64,000 nucleotides of DNA, from the IMG/VR virus record IMGVR_UViG_3300035698_003862, positions 1 to 64,000 of that record; one strand, given 5' to 3'. The first letter of the stretch is position 1, and each line of letters opens with the position of its first letter. The translations under genes were made by a program, and so were the position numbers. The notes below the pieces were generated by a model that was not told where the DNA came from, made no database searches, and worked only from the letters and a program-made list of their open reading frames with translations. The stretch is from a virus. Of this stretch, positions 1,164 to 61,116 are shown piece by piece.

Positions 1164-2975
1164 TTACACATTCAGTGCAGTCAGGATATCAGCCGGATCA
1201 ATATCAACCCGGTTAGGTGCGCCACCCTTTGTGTTCCCGCCGTCAAAGGCAGAGGCCGGTACCAGGTCGACGATAGAGGCATTCATCAAGCGCATAGCCA
1301 CGAGCGACGCGTAGACCAGCGAATGACAGAAGTCATCTGGTTGGATTGGGTTACGAAGGAACCGACGTTTGGCAATACCGTTAGGTTCCACGATCTCCTC
1401 GTACGGACTCAGGAGGTCGTCGGTAAAGATCTTGAACTCATGCTGCGGCGGGAAGCGTATTCGATCATACTTGACGGCTAGGAACAATAGCTCCATAGCT
1501 GAGGTACGGTCGACAACCCACCTGTGATGGCCCTGGAAGGCATTGTAGGAGAGCAGCCGGTTCTGGCTCAGGTATTGGATCTGAACCACAGGTAGGCCGA
1601 ATCTGTTGGCTAGCATGATGTTCTTGTCGAACCCCATGCCGAAGTCACAGGCGATCATCTGGCAACCATAGAATTGGTGGGCCCGAGCGATCTCGGTCAT
1701 TACCTCGTCAGGGTCGAAACCTACGAAACGCCGAGACCACAGCACATCGATCTTACCGTCAGGCTTAACACCGATGATGGTGTGCACAGTGAAGGACTGA
1801 TGTTCCGCGACACCCCAGTCTACGCCACCCACGGTGAAGGCATAGTCATTGAGCCGTTTCTGCAGCTGAAGGATAGTAGGAAGCACAGAGTTGCGGTCGA
1901 TGTCAGTCTGTGTAATCAGGCGAGCGCCGATACTGCAAGAGATACCCAACACTTCTTGAAGGATAATAGGGAGGGGTAACCGGGTGCATTTGCGGATGAC
2001 CTTGCCCCATTTGATAGGGTCATTCACGATAGCCGGCACTACGATCTGTGGGATGTGGTAGCCTCGAAAATCTCGCATACGTGAGGGGTAGGCTGATACA
2101 AACTCACCGTCACGCACGTTGAGCTTCCTTCCACACCTAACGCAATGGACACCATCTGGGTGAATCATCTCAAGGACGCGACCCTCTTCAGTAGGGATAT
2201 TCCAATGATTACACGCCTTGCATTGCATGACCCACTCGGACTGTGAAGACTGTTGCCACAATGCCTCGATGGTATTGTCAGTGGTCTTCGCCGTACCGGT
2301 GAAGTAACGGGCGCCCCAAGATGACGCGGTCAATGATTCTGAGATAATCGGAATGTTGTCCGGCAGTTGGTCTTGGATTTCGTCAAAATCGATACGATCG
2401 GCGTAGATACCACGTGCGCGGTCCGATGAGGTCTTTGCATAGGTTAACTGAATACCCGCGCCATTGTTGAACGATTGATGATGCACGGCGCGGACAATCT
2501 TGCTGTCTATGGGCGTCCCAGCCCGATCCTCCTGCATAGCCCTGGCTGCCCAACATGAGTTGATGGCCTCGGTTAAGTACAGGGTGGAGTAACGCTGGGT
2601 CTGTGACTGTAGCGGCGCAACATATAACAGTTGAAAATGAGGTACCGAGATCAACTCTAAGATCTCGGACCGAGACAAATTCATAGTCTTACCCAGTTGT
2701 CGACCACACATCCATAACGTATCAGTCGCATAAGACGCTTCATAAAAGGGTCGAAATTGGGGATAATTATCCAGCGTATACGGTTCACCATGAACACGAA
2801 ATAACGCATGTAATAGGTCAGCACGATGTAGGTTCTGGAGCGTTCCGACAACATCTGGCTGTTCAAGTTTTTGAGTGACACTACTGATGTCTGAGAGGGC
2901 TGACGTCATGTTGGAGATCTTCGTTTTTTGGACTGAAACACTTGAGTGTTCGGTCAATACCATGGTAGAGTACAT
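1164..2975 (-). CDS. terL: terminase large subunit (DNA packaging ATPase/nuclease)
   Basis: This is the motor that pumps DNA into the prohead and cuts it. In the 603-residue protein, a Walker A-like motif GRQLGKT sits at about 91-97 and a Walker B RIDFDEIQD at about 194-202. A Cys4 zinc site (CKAC near 252-255, CVRC near 278-281) lies between the ATPase and nuclease parts. The RNase H-fold nuclease shows GGVDWG (Asp near 386) and IACDFGMG (Asp near 444). Length is normal for phage terminases. It is the only gene I support on the minus strand, read from a strong promoter at 3003-3031. Start codons at residues 1 and 5 are both possible and neither has a clear Shine-Dalgarno site. No small subunit gene was recognised nearby. 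Confidence 0.9.
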   Translation of the reverse strand: MYSTMVLTEHSSVSVQKTKISNMTSALSDISSVTQKLEQPDVVGTLQNLHRADLLHALFRVHGEPYTLDNYPQFRPFYEASYATDTLWMCGRQLGKTMNLSRSEILELISVPHFQLLYVAPLQSQTQRYSTLYLTEAINSCWAARAMQEDRAGTPIDSKIVRAVHHQSFNNGAGIQLTYAKTSSDRARGIYADRIDFDEIQDQLPDNIPIISESLTASSWGARYFTGTAKTTDNTIEALWQQSSQSEWVMQCKACNHWNIPTEEGRVLEMIHPDGVHCVRCGRKLNVRDGEFVSAYPSRMRDFRGYHIPQIVVPAIVNDPIKWGKVIRKCTRLPLPIILQEVLGISCSIGARLITQTDIDRNSVLPTILQLQKRLNDYAFTVGGVDWGVAEHQSFTVHTIIGVKPDGKIDVLWSRRFVGFDPDEVMTEIARAHQFYGCQMIACDFGMGFDKNIMLANRFGLPVVQIQYLSQNRLLSYNAFQGHHRWVVDRTSAMELLFLAVKYDRIRFPPQHEFKIFTDDLLSPYEEIVEPNGIAKRRFLRNPIQPDDFCHSLVYASLVAMRLMNASIVDLVPASAFDGGNTKGGAPNRVDIDPADILTALNV

Positions 2976-13307: not shown

Positions 13308-13341
13308 ATTTGTGTGCACAGATATATCAGCGCACACAAAT
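13308..13341 (+). repeat. 10-bp inverted repeat in the helicase leader
   Basis: ATTTGTGTGC (13308-13317) and GCACACAAAT (13332-13341) are exact inverted arms around a 14-base AT-rich loop. They lie 25 bases before the helicase start. They could act as a DNA operator or as an mRNA hairpin over the leader. Confidence 0.5.
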
Positions 13342-13365
13342 GCGCGCTATTCAAATAGGGAGACT

Positions 13366-15936
13366 ATGACTACGGACCATCAAAATGTTCAGATTCGATG
13401 GGGCGACGGCTTCCTTGCCGTAGAGCCCACCTTCCCAGAAAAGCTTATCAAGAAGCTCAAGTACTGGCACCGCGAACTCGCATGGGACGAGGCAGCGATG
13501 AAACGAGTAGCTAGCGGACACTACCGCGAACTCTATACAGTCAATACGCATATCGACGACGAGAACCGGTTACATCAACAGCTATGCACAATGCCTGGCT
13601 TCGCTCACCTAGTGATGGAACTGCTACGTAAGGAAGGTTACGAGTTTGAATTCATCGACCAACGTACGCCGCCGCCACCTATGGACATCGTACGGGCCTG
13701 TGTTGGCCTTTACGATTACCAGATGCCTTGCGCGATCACGGCGTTACAATCCGGTGGGGGCGTCATCGCCTGTCCAACAGGATGGGGAAAGTGTATGTGC
13801 CCTGATACTAACGTGTTATATATGAACGGTAGTGTTAACCGCATGGGCAATATTGCCGTTGGCGATGTACTAATGGGTGATGATTCGCAACCGCGCACGG
13901 TGCTTGAACGCATTGATGGTAGTGGACCGATGTATCGCATCACGCCAAAGAATGGTGAGTCATTCGAAGTGGCTGATAACCATATACTGTCGCTGGTCAA
14001 GTCCGGTGACTGCAAAAGGGATAAATACCCGGATGGTCGGATCGTGGATATCACGGTAACTGACTATTTGCAGCAATCCCTGACGTTCAAACATAGATAC
14101 AAACTATACAAAGTTTGTGTCGACTGGCCAAACGTTTCGGTTAACGTTGACCCATATTGGCTTGGGCTTTGGATTGGGGACGGTGATAGTATACGTCCAT
14201 ATATCACAACAGATGATAACGAAGTTGTAGTGGCCATTTACGCATACGCTAACACGTTGGGTTTACGGGTTACTAACACTGGAATCCGTGATACCCGCAG
14301 AACGCCTACATACGGTATCGTAAAAAGCAACGGTCAAATTAACACGTTACTTAATGCTATGCGTGCTTACGGCTTACTGAAGTCAAGACGTAAGTTCATA
14401 CCACAGGAGTTCAAGGCGAACTCAAGGACTATTCGACTACAGTTATTAGCTGGTTTAATGGATTCAGGCGGGAGCCTTAATGAGGGAACCGACTTTGATT
14501 TCGTGAACACTAACTCGGAACTGGTAGATGATGTTGCGTTTTTAGCAAGATCGTTAGGGTTTAGGGTGCACCAAACGACACGCAAGTGTAAGGGCTTCGG
14601 CGTAGAGATTGATGCATATCGCCTCCGTATAACGGGAGACACGCATTTAATACCTACACGAATACCACATAAGCAGGCGGCAATACGGCAGCAGAAAAAA
14701 CATCCATTACGTACTAGCTTCAGCATCGAGCGTATTGATGATGGTCCGTATGTTGGTGTAAAGCTTGACGGTAATCATCGTTATCTATTAGGTGATTTTA
14801 CCGTTACTCACAACACGCACATAATAGCTGCGCTATGTAAGGCGTTCACGCACGAGGAGTTATGCGCCCGTAACACACCCCTGACCGTGGTAACAACCCC
14901 GGACAAGGACATTACGGCTAAGGACTATCGTGACCTGGTTAAGCTGTTACCTGATCGTGACATAGGCTTGGTTATGTCCGGTAAGAAGGGTTACTCCGAC
15001 GACGTGCAGGTGATCACGCTGGATAGCCTCCACAACCTGAATCTAGACGAGGTTGGTGTGCTAATCGTAGACGAGGTTCATACCGCGGCTTCGGCCAAAC
15101 GCACAGAGCTACTCCTGCAGGCCCGTAAAGCGCTGCGCTGGGGTGTCTCTGCAACGCCCTCAGGACGTTTCGACGGCCGAGACATAGTTACAGAGGGGTT
15201 GTTCGGTCCCGTCGTTTACACGCGAACGTACGCCCAAGGGGTGACTGACGGCGCCTTAGTCCCAATCAAGGTACTCTGGTTCGAAGCACCGCAGCCACAT
15301 ATGGGACTGGAACGCTACAACAAGTACAAAACCCGGAGCGGTCGTTACCGCAATGCCGTATGGAAGAATGAGAACTATCTCAAGTTAATCGGTGATGTCC
15401 TGAAGAGAATCCCCGGCAAGCACCAGACGCTGTGTATTATGCAGTACCTGGAACAGATGAACTTGCTGGCTGCACACTGTGATGGCATACACATGGTGCA
15501 TGCGGAAACGTCGCAAGACAACTTGAGCAAGAAGGAATACCGGAACCTGGCTGCTATATCCGCGAAGGAACGTAAAGGCATCTACACTGACATGGAGAGT
15601 GGTAAGATTCGCCAGATCCTGAGCACGCACGTGTATAAGCAGGGGGTTAACTTCCCTGACCTACAAGTAGTGATTAACGTCGGTGGCGGCGGTAGCGATA
15701 TAGTCGCCAAGCAAGTACCGGGTAGGGAGAGTAGGAAGACGGCAGACAAGCAGGTGTCTTACCTGATTGATTTCTGGCATCCGTGGGACAAACAGACGGG
15801 CAAGGACGGCAAAATACGCGCCGGCTATGTCGCCAAAGATGATCAGTCCAGGGAGAAAGCCTACACTGAACTGGAGTTTGAGCAGGTCTGGATGAAATCT
15901 ATAGATGACCTACCATTCATTGAGGCAAGCCCATGA
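13366..15936 (+). CDS. UvsW-like superfamily 2 DNA helicase, interrupted by an intein
   Basis: 856 codons from ATG 13366 (GGGAGACT just upstream). The mature helicase is 515 residues after intein removal. Motif I CPTGWGK-T is split by the intein at residues 143-483 and reforms GWGKTHIIAAL when joined. After it come motif II LIVDEVHTA, motif III GVSATPSGR, and motif VI-like QVPGRESR. The relatives remodel recombination and replication intermediates (T4 UvsW, RecG/RadD-like). It sits first in the helicase, helicase, primase, polymerase run. A short ATGA overlap joins it to the next gene. An 18-bp palindrome and an inverted repeat lie in its leader. Confidence 0.85.
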   Translation: MTTDHQNVQIRWGDGFLAVEPTFPEKLIKKLKYWHRELAWDEAAMKRVASGHYRELYTVNTHIDDENRLHQQLCTMPGFAHLVMELLRKEGYEFEFIDQRTPPPPMDIVRACVGLYDYQMPCAITALQSGGGVIACPTGWGKCMCPDTNVLYMNGSVNRMGNIAVGDVLMGDDSQPRTVLERIDGSGPMYRITPKNGESFEVADNHILSLVKSGDCKRDKYPDGRIVDITVTDYLQQSLTFKHRYKLYKVCVDWPNVSVNVDPYWLGLWIGDGDSIRPYITTDDNEVVVAIYAYANTLGLRVTNTGIRDTRRTPTYGIVKSNGQINTLLNAMRAYGLLKSRRKFIPQEFKANSRTIRLQLLAGLMDSGGSLNEGTDFDFVNTNSELVDDVAFLARSLGFRVHQTTRKCKGFGVEIDAYRLRITGDTHLIPTRIPHKQAAIRQQKKHPLRTSFSIERIDDGPYVGVKLDGNHRYLLGDFTVTHNTHIIAALCKAFTHEELCARNTPLTVVTTPDKDITAKDYRDLVKLLPDRDIGLVMSGKKGYSDDVQVITLDSLHNLNLDEVGVLIVDEVHTAASAKRTELLLQARKALRWGVSATPSGRFDGRDIVTEGLFGPVVYTRTYAQGVTDGALVPIKVLWFEAPQPHMGLERYNKYKTRSGRYRNAVWKNENYLKLIGDVLKRIPGKHQTLCIMQYLEQMNLLAAHCDGIHMVHAETSQDNLSKKEYRNLAAISAKERKGIYTDMESGKIRQILSTHVYKQGVNFPDLQVVINVGGGGSDIVAKQVPGRESRKTADKQVSYLIDFWHPWDKQTGKDGKIRAGYVAKDDQSREKAYTELEFEQVWMKSIDDLPFIEASP
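13792..14814 (+). mobile_element. intein with LAGLIDADG-type endonuclease in the helicase Walker A motif
   Basis: 341 residues. It begins with Cys (CMCPDTNVLYMNG) and ends His-Asn, with Thr as the next extein residue. Splicing block A is followed by ITPKNGESFEVADNHILSL as block B with its His. Block F/G reads VGVKLDGNHRYLLGDFTVTHN. Between them lie two LAGLIDADG-like helices: YWLGLWIGDGDS and LLAGLMDSGGS. Both acidic residues are present (Gly-Asp-Gly and Met-Asp-Ser), so the nuclease may be active. The insertion splits the codon order exactly between Lys and Thr of the P-loop, a classic intein site. Confidence 0.88.
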
Positions 15937-20314: not shown

Positions 20315-22482
20315 ATGGTGAAAAAGGAAAAGAAACCTGACGGTCCTACGTGGATAGAGGAGACACAGACTGTAGACAACTTGCTGTGGATCGTAGGAAC
20401 CGGGAAGCTGCCCTGTAAGACAATGTATGTCGCGGAACGTCCATGCGAGTCTGATGTGCGTAACAAGAGCGTATTCACTGGACCTGCGGGTTCGCTGTTC
20501 TTCGCTGAAGCGCGTAACGCCGGTGTTGATACCGATGATGCATGGGTCACTAATGCCATCAAGTATCCGACACCGGGGAATCGAGCCTCGAATGCTGGCG
20601 ACTTGAAGATGTGTAACCCGATGTTGATGGAAGAGATCGTTCGGGCTAAGCCAGAGATTATCGTGTGTATGGGGGCGCCAGCCGTTAAGGCTGTCATGGG
20701 CCGCACCTATAAGCTGGCGGATTATCGAGGTGAGGTAGTACCTTTCCCCGGCGATCCCAGCATCAAGGTATTTGCCATCTACAACCCGTCAATGGTGGCT
20801 CGATCACCAGACGTAAGTGATACGTTCAGGCAGGATCTACGTAAGCTAGCGGCAGTACAACAAGGTGTCGATAACGTACATGACGAGACCGAGTTCGAGG
20901 TTGTTCAGACAGCTGATCGATTGAGTGAAATCGTGGCGCAACTGTGGTCTGAGTCAGATCGCTTGTTCCTGTCAATTGATGCGGAATGGCATGCGCGTAC
21001 ATGGATGCACCCCGATAGCTACATACGACTCTTCCAGTTTTCTAACGAGGTTGGCAAGGCGGTTGTTGTAGAATTCCATGACGAGAACGGGCCTGTGATG
21101 GATAAGCCAGAGGAGGCCTGGGCGATACTCAAAACGTTGCTTGAAGATCCACGGGTGGGCCTGATGGGCCACAACGTGATCTCTGATGGCGAAATGCTAC
21201 TGGCATTGCAGCAGATCGATATCCGTGAGCGGGTAGTGTACGATCCCATGCTTGCCGAGCACGTCATCAACGAGACAGGACCGTTCAGCTTGACAGAGTG
21301 TACTGTAAAGTACACCAATATGGGACGCTACGACACCAAAGTGGTACAGTGGCGCGATACACATAAGAAAGAGACCAAGTATGGTTACGGACTAATTCCA
21401 CGTGACATATTCAACACGTATGCTGCCAAGGATGTAGACGCACCACTACGCATCATGCTTAAGCAGCTGCAACTCTTGCAGCCGTTCAAACAGCCACGCG
21501 GTGACTACCCGAGTTTGTGGGATATCACGTTAGCAACACAGAGATCGCTATACGAGATCGAACGTACGGGCTTGCGAATAGACCAAGAACGTTTAGAAGA
21601 TATGATTCAACGCTACCGGGTTAAGAAGCAAAACCTTATGACTCAGCTTAAGATCATGGCAGCCCAGCAAGGGTTACCGGACTTCAAGCACGGTTCGGTA
21701 GTACAGGTACGTACGCTGTTATTTGATAAGCTAGAGCTAACGCCTATCAAAACGACCAAGGGTAAACCCTGGGGTGAGTACATGCGTAACGCCTGTAATA
21801 ACGGCGTACAGGTCCACCAGCCATCAACGGACAAAACAACGTTGGAGATTCTGGAGGAGAAACACCCCGCGGTCAAGGTACTGGCACAGCTACGTAAGGT
21901 GGATCAGGCGTGTAAGGTCTGGCTACGCCACGCAGGTGAGGATGATGACGAGAACAGTAAGGGTGGCGGAATTCCTGCCAAGATATGGCTTGACGGCCGT
22001 ATGCACTCCCATTTCTCGCAGCTCTCAGATACCGGACGATTCCGGACAAATAAGCCTAACTGTCAGAACTGGCCTAAGCGTGCTGAGGGTTACATGGAGC
22101 AGATATTCGGGAGTAAGGAAGCGACACCCCCGTTACTCCGTACTGTAGTCGTCCCGTCTGACGGCTATTACTTCATGGAAGCTGATTACAAACAAGCTGA
22201 ACTGTTCGTGCTGGCGTCACTATCTGAGGATCCGACAATGTGGTCGGCTCTGACGACGCCGGGTAAGGATATGCATGACATGACAGCGATTACAGCGTTC
22301 GGACTTGTACTGCAGGATGAAAGCGGTAACACGGTATCGGAAAAATACTTGTTGGATCTGGCGGCTAGGGACATGGATAAGTTCAAAGCTGTACAGAAGG
22401 AACTGTTCTATTTAGACCAGAAAGGTCGACGGTTAACACGAGGAGAATTCAAAGACGGAATACGCGTGAGTGCCAAGAATCT
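20315..22482 (+). CDS. DNA polymerase family A, exon 1 (UDG-like + exonuclease + start of polymerase domain)
   Basis: First exon of a polymerase gene cut by two group I introns. Residues about 35-175 look like a uracil-DNA glycosylase domain (ERPCESDV, AIKYPTPGNR, VCMGAPAVKA), as in SPO1-type polymerases. A 3'-5' exonuclease follows with LSIDAEWH (Asp222, Glu224), GHNVISDGEM and YAAKDVDAP. Polymerase motif A FMEADYKQAEL (Asp624) is complete. The exon ends after AAGAATCT inside motif B, leaving a split Leu codon. Unspliced, the frame runs only to a stop at 22498. Joined exons 1, 2 and 3 keep frame and give 906 residues. Confidence 0.88.
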
Positions 22483-23527
22483 CGCACTTTTTACTTGATT
22501 TAGCTCAATGTCTTAGGTTAAAGTGTTTGTATGGAAGCTAAAACTATAAACTGTAAGACATGCGGGCAACCTTTCGTTGCCCGGGACCCTAGAAAAATGT
22601 ACTGCTCACCAAGGTGTAATAGCAAGTCCATCAGGTTACGGAAACGTAAACTATGGGATGCTCCACGTAAGTGTAGACAGTGCGGCAAAGAATTCAAACC
22701 GTTCACAAAGCGTAACGTCTATTGCTCTGACAAATGCAAAGTCGATTACGGCAATGCGCACAAAGCGTACGTACATACATGTGTCGGGTGCAGCACAGAG
22801 TTTACGTCCCGGAACCCCGGAACGAAATACTGCACACGAAGCTGTGCGCTGGCACATACCGTAGTTGAACGCCTGCTTACCTGTGAGGACTGTGGCGCGG
22901 AGTTTACGTTTATTGGAAGAACACGTAAACATCGCTGCCCACACTGCCACAGGCGGTACTGGAACGACTACTACGCTGATGCTATGACCGCCAGGGGCAC
23001 GACGCACTGGTCAAATAGCGGGACGTACGCTAACAATAAGGTTAAGCTGTCTGCGGAGCGCAGAGCTGGTTATCGCGCTGCGTCTTTCGCTGCGTGGGGG
23101 AGTGATTGTATCATATGTGGTAGGGATCACAGTGAAACAGGGGCGGCCGTGGATGTACATCACGTCGACGGTGACCTGTGTAATATTACGGTCACGAACA
23201 TCATACCGTTGTGTCGTAGGTGTCATGGACGCGTGCATAGCCTAGCTAGGCGCGGCACGTTCAAGACGCGGGTTACGGCATCGATGTTGCAAGCAGCTTT
23301 GTTTGAATTCTGGCCTGAGGGTCAGCAAGTAATTGGGATCTCTATGCAGCAATGCATAGATGACAACACCGCTAATTCGGGGAACGCTAAGTCATGAAAG
23401 TGATATGCCAATCCCGAGCTAGGAGCATAGCTCCGAGTGTAGAGACTTTATACGGTGCACCCCTAGCGGGTGAAGAGAAAGTCCAGACCACAAACGGGAG
23501 ACCGGCAGTGAAAACTGTAGTGGTAAG
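22483..23527 (+). mobile_element. group I intron 1 in the polymerase gene (motif B)
   Basis: The exon before it ends in T and the intron ends in G, as group I rules require. Joining at 22482/23528 restores RVSAKNLNFGIPYG, a clean motif B. Core elements are visible at the 3' end: P-like AATTCGGGGAACGC (23374-23387), Q-like AATCCCGAGC (23410-23419), a GGAGC/GCTCC hairpin (P6-like), and P7 strands GACTTT (23444-23449) and AAAGTC (23478-23483). A P8-like CACCC/GGGTG hairpin lies between the P7 strands. The HNH gene fills the 5' two thirds, and its last codons overlap the P element. Confidence 0.85.
22531..23397 (+). CDS. HNH homing endonuclease with four zinc modules (intron 1)
   Basis: 288 residues. 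Four CxxC-type zinc modules run in series (CKTCGQPF..., CRQCGKEF..., CVGCSTEF..., CEDCGAEF...), each about 25-35 residues and ending in a second Cys pair. A C-terminal HNH nuclease follows: CIICGRDHSE, then DVHHVDGD and NIIPLCRRCHGRVH. The zinc array probably reads the intron-less target around polymerase motif B. It has no strong Shine-Dalgarno site. The last residues are encoded by bases that also form the ribozyme P element. Confidence 0.85.
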   Translation: MEAKTINCKTCGQPFVARDPRKMYCSPRCNSKSIRLRKRKLWDAPRKCRQCGKEFKPFTKRNVYCSDKCKVDYGNAHKAYVHTCVGCSTEFTSRNPGTKYCTRSCALAHTVVERLLTCEDCGAEFTFIGRTRKHRCPHCHRRYWNDYYADAMTARGTTHWSNSGTYANNKVKLSAERRAGYRAASFAAWGSDCIICGRDHSETGAAVDVHHVDGDLCNITVTNIIPLCRRCHGRVHSLARRGTFKTRVTASMLQAALFEFWPEGQQVIGISMQQCIDDNTANSGNAKS

Positions 23528-50679: not shown

Positions 50680-50906
50680 CTACACGTGCCGAGTTGGCCG
50701 TGATGATCGGTGTGTCACTTGAGACAGTACGTGCGTGGGAGCGCAATAAGCGTAAGCCCACTCACGTACATCTTCTTCAGCTGGCCGTGGCGCTGGAACT
50801 AGATCCAACAGAACGACTTAGGTTACAGCATCCATTGTATGCTTTAGAATTCCCTCCGACGGTATTGACACCGCACATGGGCGGTGATACAACTGAAGAC
50901 AGTTAA
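50610..50906 (+). CDS. XRE-family helix-turn-helix regulator
   Basis: 98 residues from GTG 50610 (AAGGGGAAAG upstream). The Cro/CI-type HTH is clear: FGEQLREYRERIIATRAELA then IGVSLETVRAWERNKRKPT, near 11-52. A linker and short tail follow. It overlaps the previous gene by 70 bases and ends right before a tRNA gene. It could bind one of the palindromes in this window. Confidence 0.72.
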   Translation: MQAIERAKGTFGEQLREYRERIIATRAELAVMIGVSLETVRAWERNKRKPTHVHLLQLAVALELDPTERLRLQHPLYALEFPPTVLTPHMGGDTTEDS

Positions 50907-50978
50907 TGCGGGGTAGCGCAGTCGGTAGCGCGTCTGACTCATAATCAAAAGGCCGTCGGTTCGAGTCCGGCCCCGCAA
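50907..50978 (+). tRNA. tRNA with CAU anticodon (Met or Ile2)
   Basis: Acceptor TGCGGGG / CCCCGCA, D-arm with GTCGGTA, T-arm GTCGG-TTCGAGT-CCGGC. The anticodon loop CTCATAA gives CAT at 50940-50942. One C-A mismatch in the anticodon stem. CCA is not encoded. Initiator features (three G-C pairs in the anticodon stem) are absent, so elongator Met or lysidine-type Ile are the options. Confidence 0.85.
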
Positions 50979-51006
50979 CTAACTCTCTCAGCCAGGAGGA
51001 TACGAG

Positions 51007-51262: not shown

Positions 51263-51641
51263 GGGGGTGTATTTGGTTTCGACATAGGGATTGCCTAATT
51301 GTTACTGCATGCCGAGGACTCCGGTTGGCCTCGTTAAACTTCCGGAACACAAAGTAACTGATAACACAGTTGCATTCCCTGGTGTACCCGCGCAATTTGC
51401 GCGGGCCGCGTAAGCGACCAGCGTCAGCCCTGCGACTCCGCTAACAGGTGCTGGCGACGACAGCGGATACGCCGGTGAATCCGGTGATGCTGACTCGGGC
51501 GTAGATCAGCTGGAAATATTGGCCCGTGACGGCGGCTGGAAAGACAGTCGAAGGGTGTTGGTGCCCTCATCATCAAATATGCATGTAGACGTGACAGTGA
51601 AGCCCGCTATGGACAGGACTTCGATGTCCTCACCTCCACCA
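51263..51641 (+). ncRNA. ssrA: transfer-messenger RNA (tmRNA)
   Basis: About 379 bases. The 5' end GGGGGTG pairs with CACCTCC and is followed by ACCA; the third pair is G-U, the alanine identity mark. The conserved GGTTTCGAC starts at 51273. Pseudoknot 1 is visible as CCGAGG...CCTCG with inner CTCCGG/CCGGA. The tag frame probably resumes at GAT 51360, preceded by TAACT, and runs to TAA at 51411: DNTVAFPGVPAQFARAA. A CCCGCGC/GCGCGGG hairpin covers the last tag codons. GCATGTAG near the 3' end is also conserved. The T-loop looks one base short (TTCGAT). It would rescue stalled ribosomes with SmpB from the host. Confidence 0.92.
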
Positions 51642-61038: not shown

Positions 61039-61116
61039 GGAGACATAGCTCAGTAGGTTAGAGCATCGGCCTGTCGAGGTCGAGGGTCGTGGGTTCGAGT
61101 CCCACTGTCTCCGCCA
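61039..61116 (+). tRNA. tRNA-Asp (GUC anticodon)
   Basis: Acceptor GGAGACA / TGTCTCC then GCCA. Anticodon loop CTGTCGA. T-loop TTCGAGT. It starts two bases after tRNA-Lys, so both probably come from one precursor. Confidence 0.92.

What the first reader, a model, noticed from the sequence alone, without database searches (positions are those of the whole stretch)
51263..51641. Phage-encoded tmRNA with a predicted 17-residue tag
All main tmRNA landmarks are visible: a G3-U70 acceptor stem, GGTTTCGAC, PK1, a tag frame, GCATGTAG and encoded CCA. The predicted tag DNTVAFPGVPAQFARAA ends in ARAA rather than the usual (L/V)AA. tmRNA genes on phages are rare. A tag ending unlike the host's could change which proteins are degraded or spare phage products. 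No SmpB gene was seen here.
Basis: partly seen in the sequence, partly recalled or inferred. Interest (0 to 1): 0.82.

Follow-up and report, generated by a model that had tools for sequence, protein, structure and literature searches.

The report
Phage tmRNA with unusual tag ending
A large uncultured bacterial virus carries its own intact copy of tmRNA, the RNA that frees stuck ribosomes and tags their half-made proteins; this is a known kind of phage gene, made mildly unusual by a lengthened tag ending in ARAA where its two nearest relatives end in LAA.

Summary
Rfam RF00023 matches 51263-51641 end to end (109.6 bits, cut-off 47, E 6e-42). The acceptor stem with G3-U70, PK1, tag frame, T arm and CCA are all there. 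ARAGORN misses it, probably because the T loop has 6 nt rather than 7. The tag DNTVAFPGVPAQFARAA is well supported: U and A at -5/-4 of the resume codon, alignment with tags of other phage tmRNAs, and other frames poor. The window is about a third of a phage lineage of about 210 kb (42-43 of 66 window ORFs are shared with two 209-211 kb records). Both of those encode a tmRNA, and neither encodes SmpB. Their tags are 8 residues and end KLAA; the window's tag has 17 and ends ARAA, so Arg at -3 is probably derived. None of 181 other predicted tags ends in RAA. The 'rare' claim needs correction: 2.3% of 18,146 phage genomes carry ssrA (PMC9004378). Most likely it works with host SmpB as an ordinary trans-translation RNA, part of a phage translation-RNA set. 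Ala-Ala-COO is the main ClpX determinant, so the tag probably still degrades. Host unknown; altered proteolysis is untested.

The parts
51263..51641 (+). ssrA gene: one-piece tmRNA
   Evidence: RF00023 109.6 bits, E 6.1e-42, full-length
51263..51269 (+). acceptor stem 5' strand GGGGGTG (G3 pairs with U70)
   Evidence: sequence; pairs 7/7 with 51631-51637
51275..51283 (+). D-arm-like element GGTTTCGAC
   Evidence: sequence; conserved in phage and bacterial tmRNAs
51313..51346 (+). pseudoknot PK1 (CGAGG/CCTCG and TCCGG/CCGGA)
   Evidence: RF00023 alignment; sequence
51355..51356 (+). U(-5) A(-4), reading-frame determinant equivalent to U85/A86
   Evidence: rule from PMC2481249
51360..51413 (+). 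tag reading frame DNTVAFPGVPAQFARAA and stop TAA
51387..51405 (+). inverted repeat CCCGCGCAATTTGCGCGGG inside the tag frame, in the extra stretch absent from relatives
   Evidence: fold; single copy in window; 7% of shuffles of the tag frame fold as stably
51581..51588 (+). GCATGTAG, start of the 3' strand of helix P2
51615..51630 (+). T arm AGGAC-TTCGAT-GTCCT with 6-nt loop
51631..51641 (+). acceptor 3' strand CACCTCC, discriminator A, encoded CCA
50906..50979 (+). tRNA-Met, upstream member of the tRNA-rich region; same order tRNA-Met, tmRNA, tRNA-Gln in G096
1164..2975 (-). terminase large subunit (shows the window is phage DNA)
   Evidence: phrog_675 E 1.3e-54

Best explanation
This is a functional one-piece tmRNA gene carried in the tRNA-rich region of a tailed phage of about 210 kb. 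Most likely it is transcribed with its neighbours and trimmed like a tRNA precursor. The host alanyl-tRNA synthetase charges it, host SmpB and EF-Tu bring it to ribosomes stalled on broken or non-stop mRNA, translation resumes at GAU, and 17 residues ending ARAA are added. Tagged fragments are then degraded by host ClpXP-like proteases through the terminal Ala-Ala. Its benefit to the phage is probably to keep ribosomes available during infection, as part of a phage-supplied set of translation RNAs. Shown: RNA anatomy, reading-frame signals, conservation of a tmRNA in the two closest long relatives, absence of SmpB and ClpP from the records. Inferred: expression, charging, tagging, degradation and benefit.
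For: Full-length RF00023 match. P1, P2 and the T stem form in the window, G096 and G101 although their sequences differ, e.g. acceptor GGGGGTG/CACCTCC, GGGGCCA/TGGCTCC and GGGGCTG/CAGCTCC. 42-43 window ORFs are shared, mostly in the same order, with G096 (208,908 bp) and G101 (210,732 bp). Both have tmRNAs over the cut-off, 114.1 and 82.7 bits. Order tRNA-Met, tmRNA, tRNA-Gln is the same in G096. Among 206 tmRNAs compared, the window's best match is that of G101. G101 tag GNTLKLAA and the G018 frame DNALPLAA align with the window start DNTV, each with U/A at -5/-4. G096 carries 26 tRNAs covering all 20 amino acids. Host tmRNA supports growth of some phages, and there the tag itself is not critical (PMC2481249). 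Terminal Ala-Ala is the key ClpX determinant (PMC7652416).
Against: No expression data. The tag extension, the Arg at -3 and the 6-nt T loop are all changes from its relatives, so partial decay or changed function is possible. Three more distant relatives on long records (G093, G103, G106) lack a tmRNA over the cut-off, so it is accessory. The host and its own tmRNA are unknown.
Confidence: 0.77

Rival explanations
1. The altered tag is the point: ribosomes are rescued, but Arg at -3 and the longer tag weaken or redirect proteolysis, so tagged phage (or host) fragments persist or go to another protease or adaptor.
For: Arg at -3 is in none of 181 other predicted tags; one has Lys there. Two phage relatives and the unrelated phage G018 keep Leu at -3, so the ending is probably derived. 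Changing the -3 Leu or the residue two before it raises ClpXP KM modestly (PMC7652416).
Against: The terminal Ala-Ala is kept, and it is the main determinant. The change came with an insertion and may be neutral. The host tag is unknown. The -3 residue is Gln, Ala or Lys in a few other tags.
Confidence: 0.12
2. A decaying passenger copy, captured from a host and no longer functional in this phage.
For: Lower Rfam score than the bacterial tmRNAs scored here (111-171 bits); 6-nt T loop, inserted tag segment, ARAGORN miss.
Against: P1, T stem, PK1, frame signal and CCA are intact, and P2 is paired as in relatives. 6-nt T loops are common: 119 fetched viral-contig matches, all with 5/5 T-stem pairs, though mostly permuted tmRNAs. 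A tmRNA is kept in both closest long relatives.
Confidence: 0.07
3. An SmpB- or ribosome-titrating inhibitor of host trans-translation, as proposed for TLD-only phage RNAs.
For: Mycobacteriophage DS6A carries little more than the tRNA-like domain, and a similar molecule inhibits tmRNA (PMC4131195). TLD-only RNAs occur on viral contigs L154, L155, L156 and L183.
Against: The present gene keeps PK1, the frame signal and an open tag frame, which a decoy would not need.
Confidence: 0.03
4. An attachment-site copy of host ssrA left by integration.
For: ssrA is a known integration site, e.g. cluster K1 mycobacteriophages (PMC3203893).
Against: The K1 attP copies hold only the extreme 3' end; this gene is full-length. 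It lies inside a phage lineage of about 210 kb and is conserved at the same relative place in G096.
Confidence: 0.01

Closest known systems
Bacterial one-piece tmRNA (ssrA, RF00023)
   Same: Acceptor stem with G3-U70, tRNA-like domain, PK1, A at -4 of the resume codon, tag ending Ala-Ala, CCA encoded
   Different: 6-nt T loop; resume codon GAU (Asp), seen as first residue in only 1 of 181 predicted tags; 17-residue tag with Arg at -3; no smpB nearby
Phage-encoded tmRNAs (mycobacteriophages Bxz1, Wildcat and relatives; Bacillus phage G; Sinorhizobium jumbo phage AP-J-162; OM43 phage Melnitz, two-piece) (PMC4131195, PMC11242549, PMC9004378)
   Same: tmRNA on a phage genome; AP-J-162 is likewise a jumbo phage with many tRNAs
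   Different: An uncultured lineage with no close relative found in the annotated phage collection; one-piece; different tag
tmRNAs of sister contigs G096 (IMGVR_UViG_3300043786_000977) and G101 (IMGVR_UViG_3300031707_000001)
   Same: Same phage lineage; about 68% identity over aligned positions; G096 has the same tRNA-Met / tmRNA / tRNA-Gln order
   Different: Tags GNTLKLAA (G101) and AEPMKLAA (G096, my reading; ARAGORN starts it earlier, inside PK1); 7-nt T loops; no hairpin-bearing tag insert

Membership tests
tmRNA (RF00023) | Covariance-model match over the curated cut-off along the full model | tested here: met
   109.6 bits vs 47, positions 1-374
tmRNA (RF00023) | tRNA-like domain with alanine identity (G3-U70) and CCA | tested here: met
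   sequence
tmRNA (RF00023) | PK1 upstream of the resume codon | tested here: met
   CM alignment
tmRNA (RF00023) | A at -4 of the resume codon and an open tag frame with small or hydrophobic C terminus | tested here: met
   U51355/A51356; tag ends AA; rule from PMC2481249
tmRNA (RF00023) | Hydrophobic residue at -3 (L/V/M/Y/I/F), typical of tags but not defining | tested here: not met
   Arg at -3; found in 0 of 181 other predicted tags
tmRNA (RF00023) | Alanine charging, SmpB binding, tagging activity | not testable with these tools
   needs the bench
Phage-encoded tmRNA | Gene lies in phage DNA, not host contamination | tested here: met
   terminase and UvsX-like recombinase; 42-43 ORFs shared with 209-211 kb phage records, which also carry tmRNA
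Phage SmpB-tmRNA pair | smpB on the same genome | tested here: not met
   No PF01668 in G000, G096, G101, G093, G103, G106
TLD-only phage RNA (DS6A type) | Only acceptor, D-like and T arms, no tag | tested here: not met
   379 nt with tag frame

The most novel reading that the evidence does not exclude
This lineage member has re-tuned its tag (insert plus Arg at -3) so that ribosome rescue is uncoupled from, or redirected away from, the host's usual ClpXP degradation during infection.
Probability: 0.1. Interest if true: 0.62.

Novelty: new member of a known kind. Interest (0 to 1): 0.3.

Why it matters
It adds a jumbo-sized, uncultured phage lineage to those carrying ssrA, and gives a natural series of related phage tags (GNTLKLAA, AEPMKLAA, DNTVAFPGVPAQFARAA) for asking whether phage tags are selected for degradation. 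It also shows that ARAGORN alone undercounts phage tmRNAs: it misses this one and several other full-length viral tmRNAs that pass Rfam's cut-off.

Tried and rejected
Sequencing error or pseudogene because of the 6-nt T loop: rejected, since 119 fetched viral-contig matches to the 6-nt-loop pattern all have 5/5 stem pairs. Unusual acceptor-to-GG spacer: ordinary. Close relatives through the neighbouring 356-aa protein: none. Through the DNA ligase: 31-44% matches only; two of those contigs carry other tmRNAs with tags ending ELALAA. Host by exact tRNA-Asn match: none. Host by the 5' 21 nt of the tmRNA: 52 stretches, mostly Clostridia, not discriminating. G018 has the second most similar tmRNA but no proteins shared with the window, so it is not the same lineage. 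The hairpin in the tag frame does not clearly beat chance (7% of shuffles). No ClpP in the window record, G096 or G101.

Full report
What is there. Rfam's tmRNA model covers 51263-51641 from first to last position at 109.6 bits (cut-off 47, E 6.1e-42). Acceptor GGGGGTG/CACCTCC pairs 7 of 7 with G3-U70. GGTTTCGAC, PK1, the tag frame, GCATGTAG, a T arm and A-CCA follow in order. ARAGORN reports ten tRNAs in the window but not this gene, probably because the T loop has six letters, TTCGAT.

The odd T loop is real. A pattern for a 6-nt T loop in front of C-A-N-CTCC-ACCA found 119 stretches in viral contigs before the scan stopped, and every one has 5 of 5 T-stem pairs. Of those whose 5' part was found nearby, nearly all are permuted (two-piece) tmRNAs; a handful are one-piece. 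The longer acceptor-to-GG spacer is also common.

The tag. Resume codon GAT at 51360 has U at -5 and A at -4, the frame determinants in E. coli (A86; PMC2481249). The frame gives DNTVAFPGVPAQFARAA and TAA at 51411-51413. Of the other two frames, one meets a stop at once next to the resume site and the other gives a peptide ending LRLR. The tmRNAs of phage contigs G101 (GGT AAC ACA CTG AAA CTC GCT GCC TAG) and G018 (GAT AAC GCA CTT CCT CTC GCT GCT TAA) start at the same place with the same upstream signal. The window's tag keeps that start, gains nine residues that include a 19-nt inverted repeat, and ends ARAA. The repeat does not clearly beat shuffles (7%).

The phage. The record is 66.4 kb, 51% GC, with terminase (phrog_675) and UvsX-like recombinase, family A DNA polymerase and DnaB-like helicase, and ATP-dependent DNA ligase. 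A terminase profile found relatives. Two of them, G096 (208,908 bp) and G101 (210,732 bp), share 43 and 42 of the 66 window ORFs tested, mostly in order, at about 25-68% identity. Both carry tmRNAs (114.1 and 82.7 bits), 26 and 27 tRNAs and no SmpB. G096's tRNAs cover all 20 amino acids. In G096 the order tRNA-Met, tmRNA, tRNA-Gln is that of the window. Of 206 tmRNAs compared, the window's is most like G101's. More distant relatives G093, G103 and G106 have no tmRNA over the cut-off. The gene is therefore an accessory kept in one part of a jumbo-sized phage lineage, not host contamination.

How it most likely works. Host AlaRS, SmpB and EF-Tu handle it as they handle host tmRNA; ribosomes stalled on broken mRNA are freed, and the fragment gets the tag. 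The phage probably gains free ribosomes, alongside tRNAs that may make up for tRNA loss under attack (PMC10264068 argues this for phage tRNAs). Host tmRNA supports growth of some phages without the tag function being critical (PMC2481249). Degradation is likely retained, since Ala-Ala-COO matters most to ClpX and the Leu at -3 only modestly (PMC7652416). None of this was measured for this RNA.

How unusual. ssrA was found in 402 of 18,146 phage genomes, with 133 unique structures (PMC9004378); earlier lists name mycobacteriophages and Bacillus phage G (PMC4131195). Two pattern scans of viral contigs each stopped at 120 stretches. Of 181 distinct predicted tags in the viral and bacterial loci fetched here, 153 end AA; the residue before is L in 107, K in one and R in none. 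A few of those predictions are clearly wrong, and the sample is not random. ARAA is thus rare but keeps the key dipeptide.

Limits. The host is unknown (searches did not resolve it), so 'unlike the host's tag' cannot be judged. G096's tag is read here as AEPMKLAA because ARAGORN's start lies inside PK1; this is inference. IMG/VR records may be fragments, so absence of smpB is firmest for the two records of about 210 kb.

Noticed in passing
window 61039-61116: tRNA (Asp-like, GUC) with an 8-nt anticodon loop CTGTCGAG, reported by ARAGORN as anticodon gtcg: possible +1 frameshift suppressor, or a loop change that evades anticodon nucleases (compare PMC10264068).
   Followed up: partly
L154 1501-1580, L155 1209-1285, L156 1501-1562, L183 1501-1582: TLD-only mini-tmRNAs of 62-82 nt on viral contigs, with acceptor, D-like and T arms but no tag, like mycobacteriophage DS6A; possible SmpB decoys recurring in different phages.
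   Followed up: partly
G096 (208,908 bp; loci L531-L541), tRNAs 122906-154737: A phage record with 26 tRNAs covering all 20 amino acids plus a tmRNA: a complete decoding and rescue RNA set.
   Followed up: partly
window 20315-22498: Family A DNA polymerase with an N-terminal uracil-DNA-glycosylase-superfamily domain (PF03167).
   Followed up: no
window 13312-15936: Helicase interrupted by a Hint plus homing-endonuclease segment (intein).
   Followed up: no
L147, L151, L153, L157, L173, L177, L179, L180: Full-length viral tmRNAs over Rfam's cut-off that ARAGORN does not report, so published ARAGORN counts of phage tmRNA are lower bounds.
   Followed up: partly
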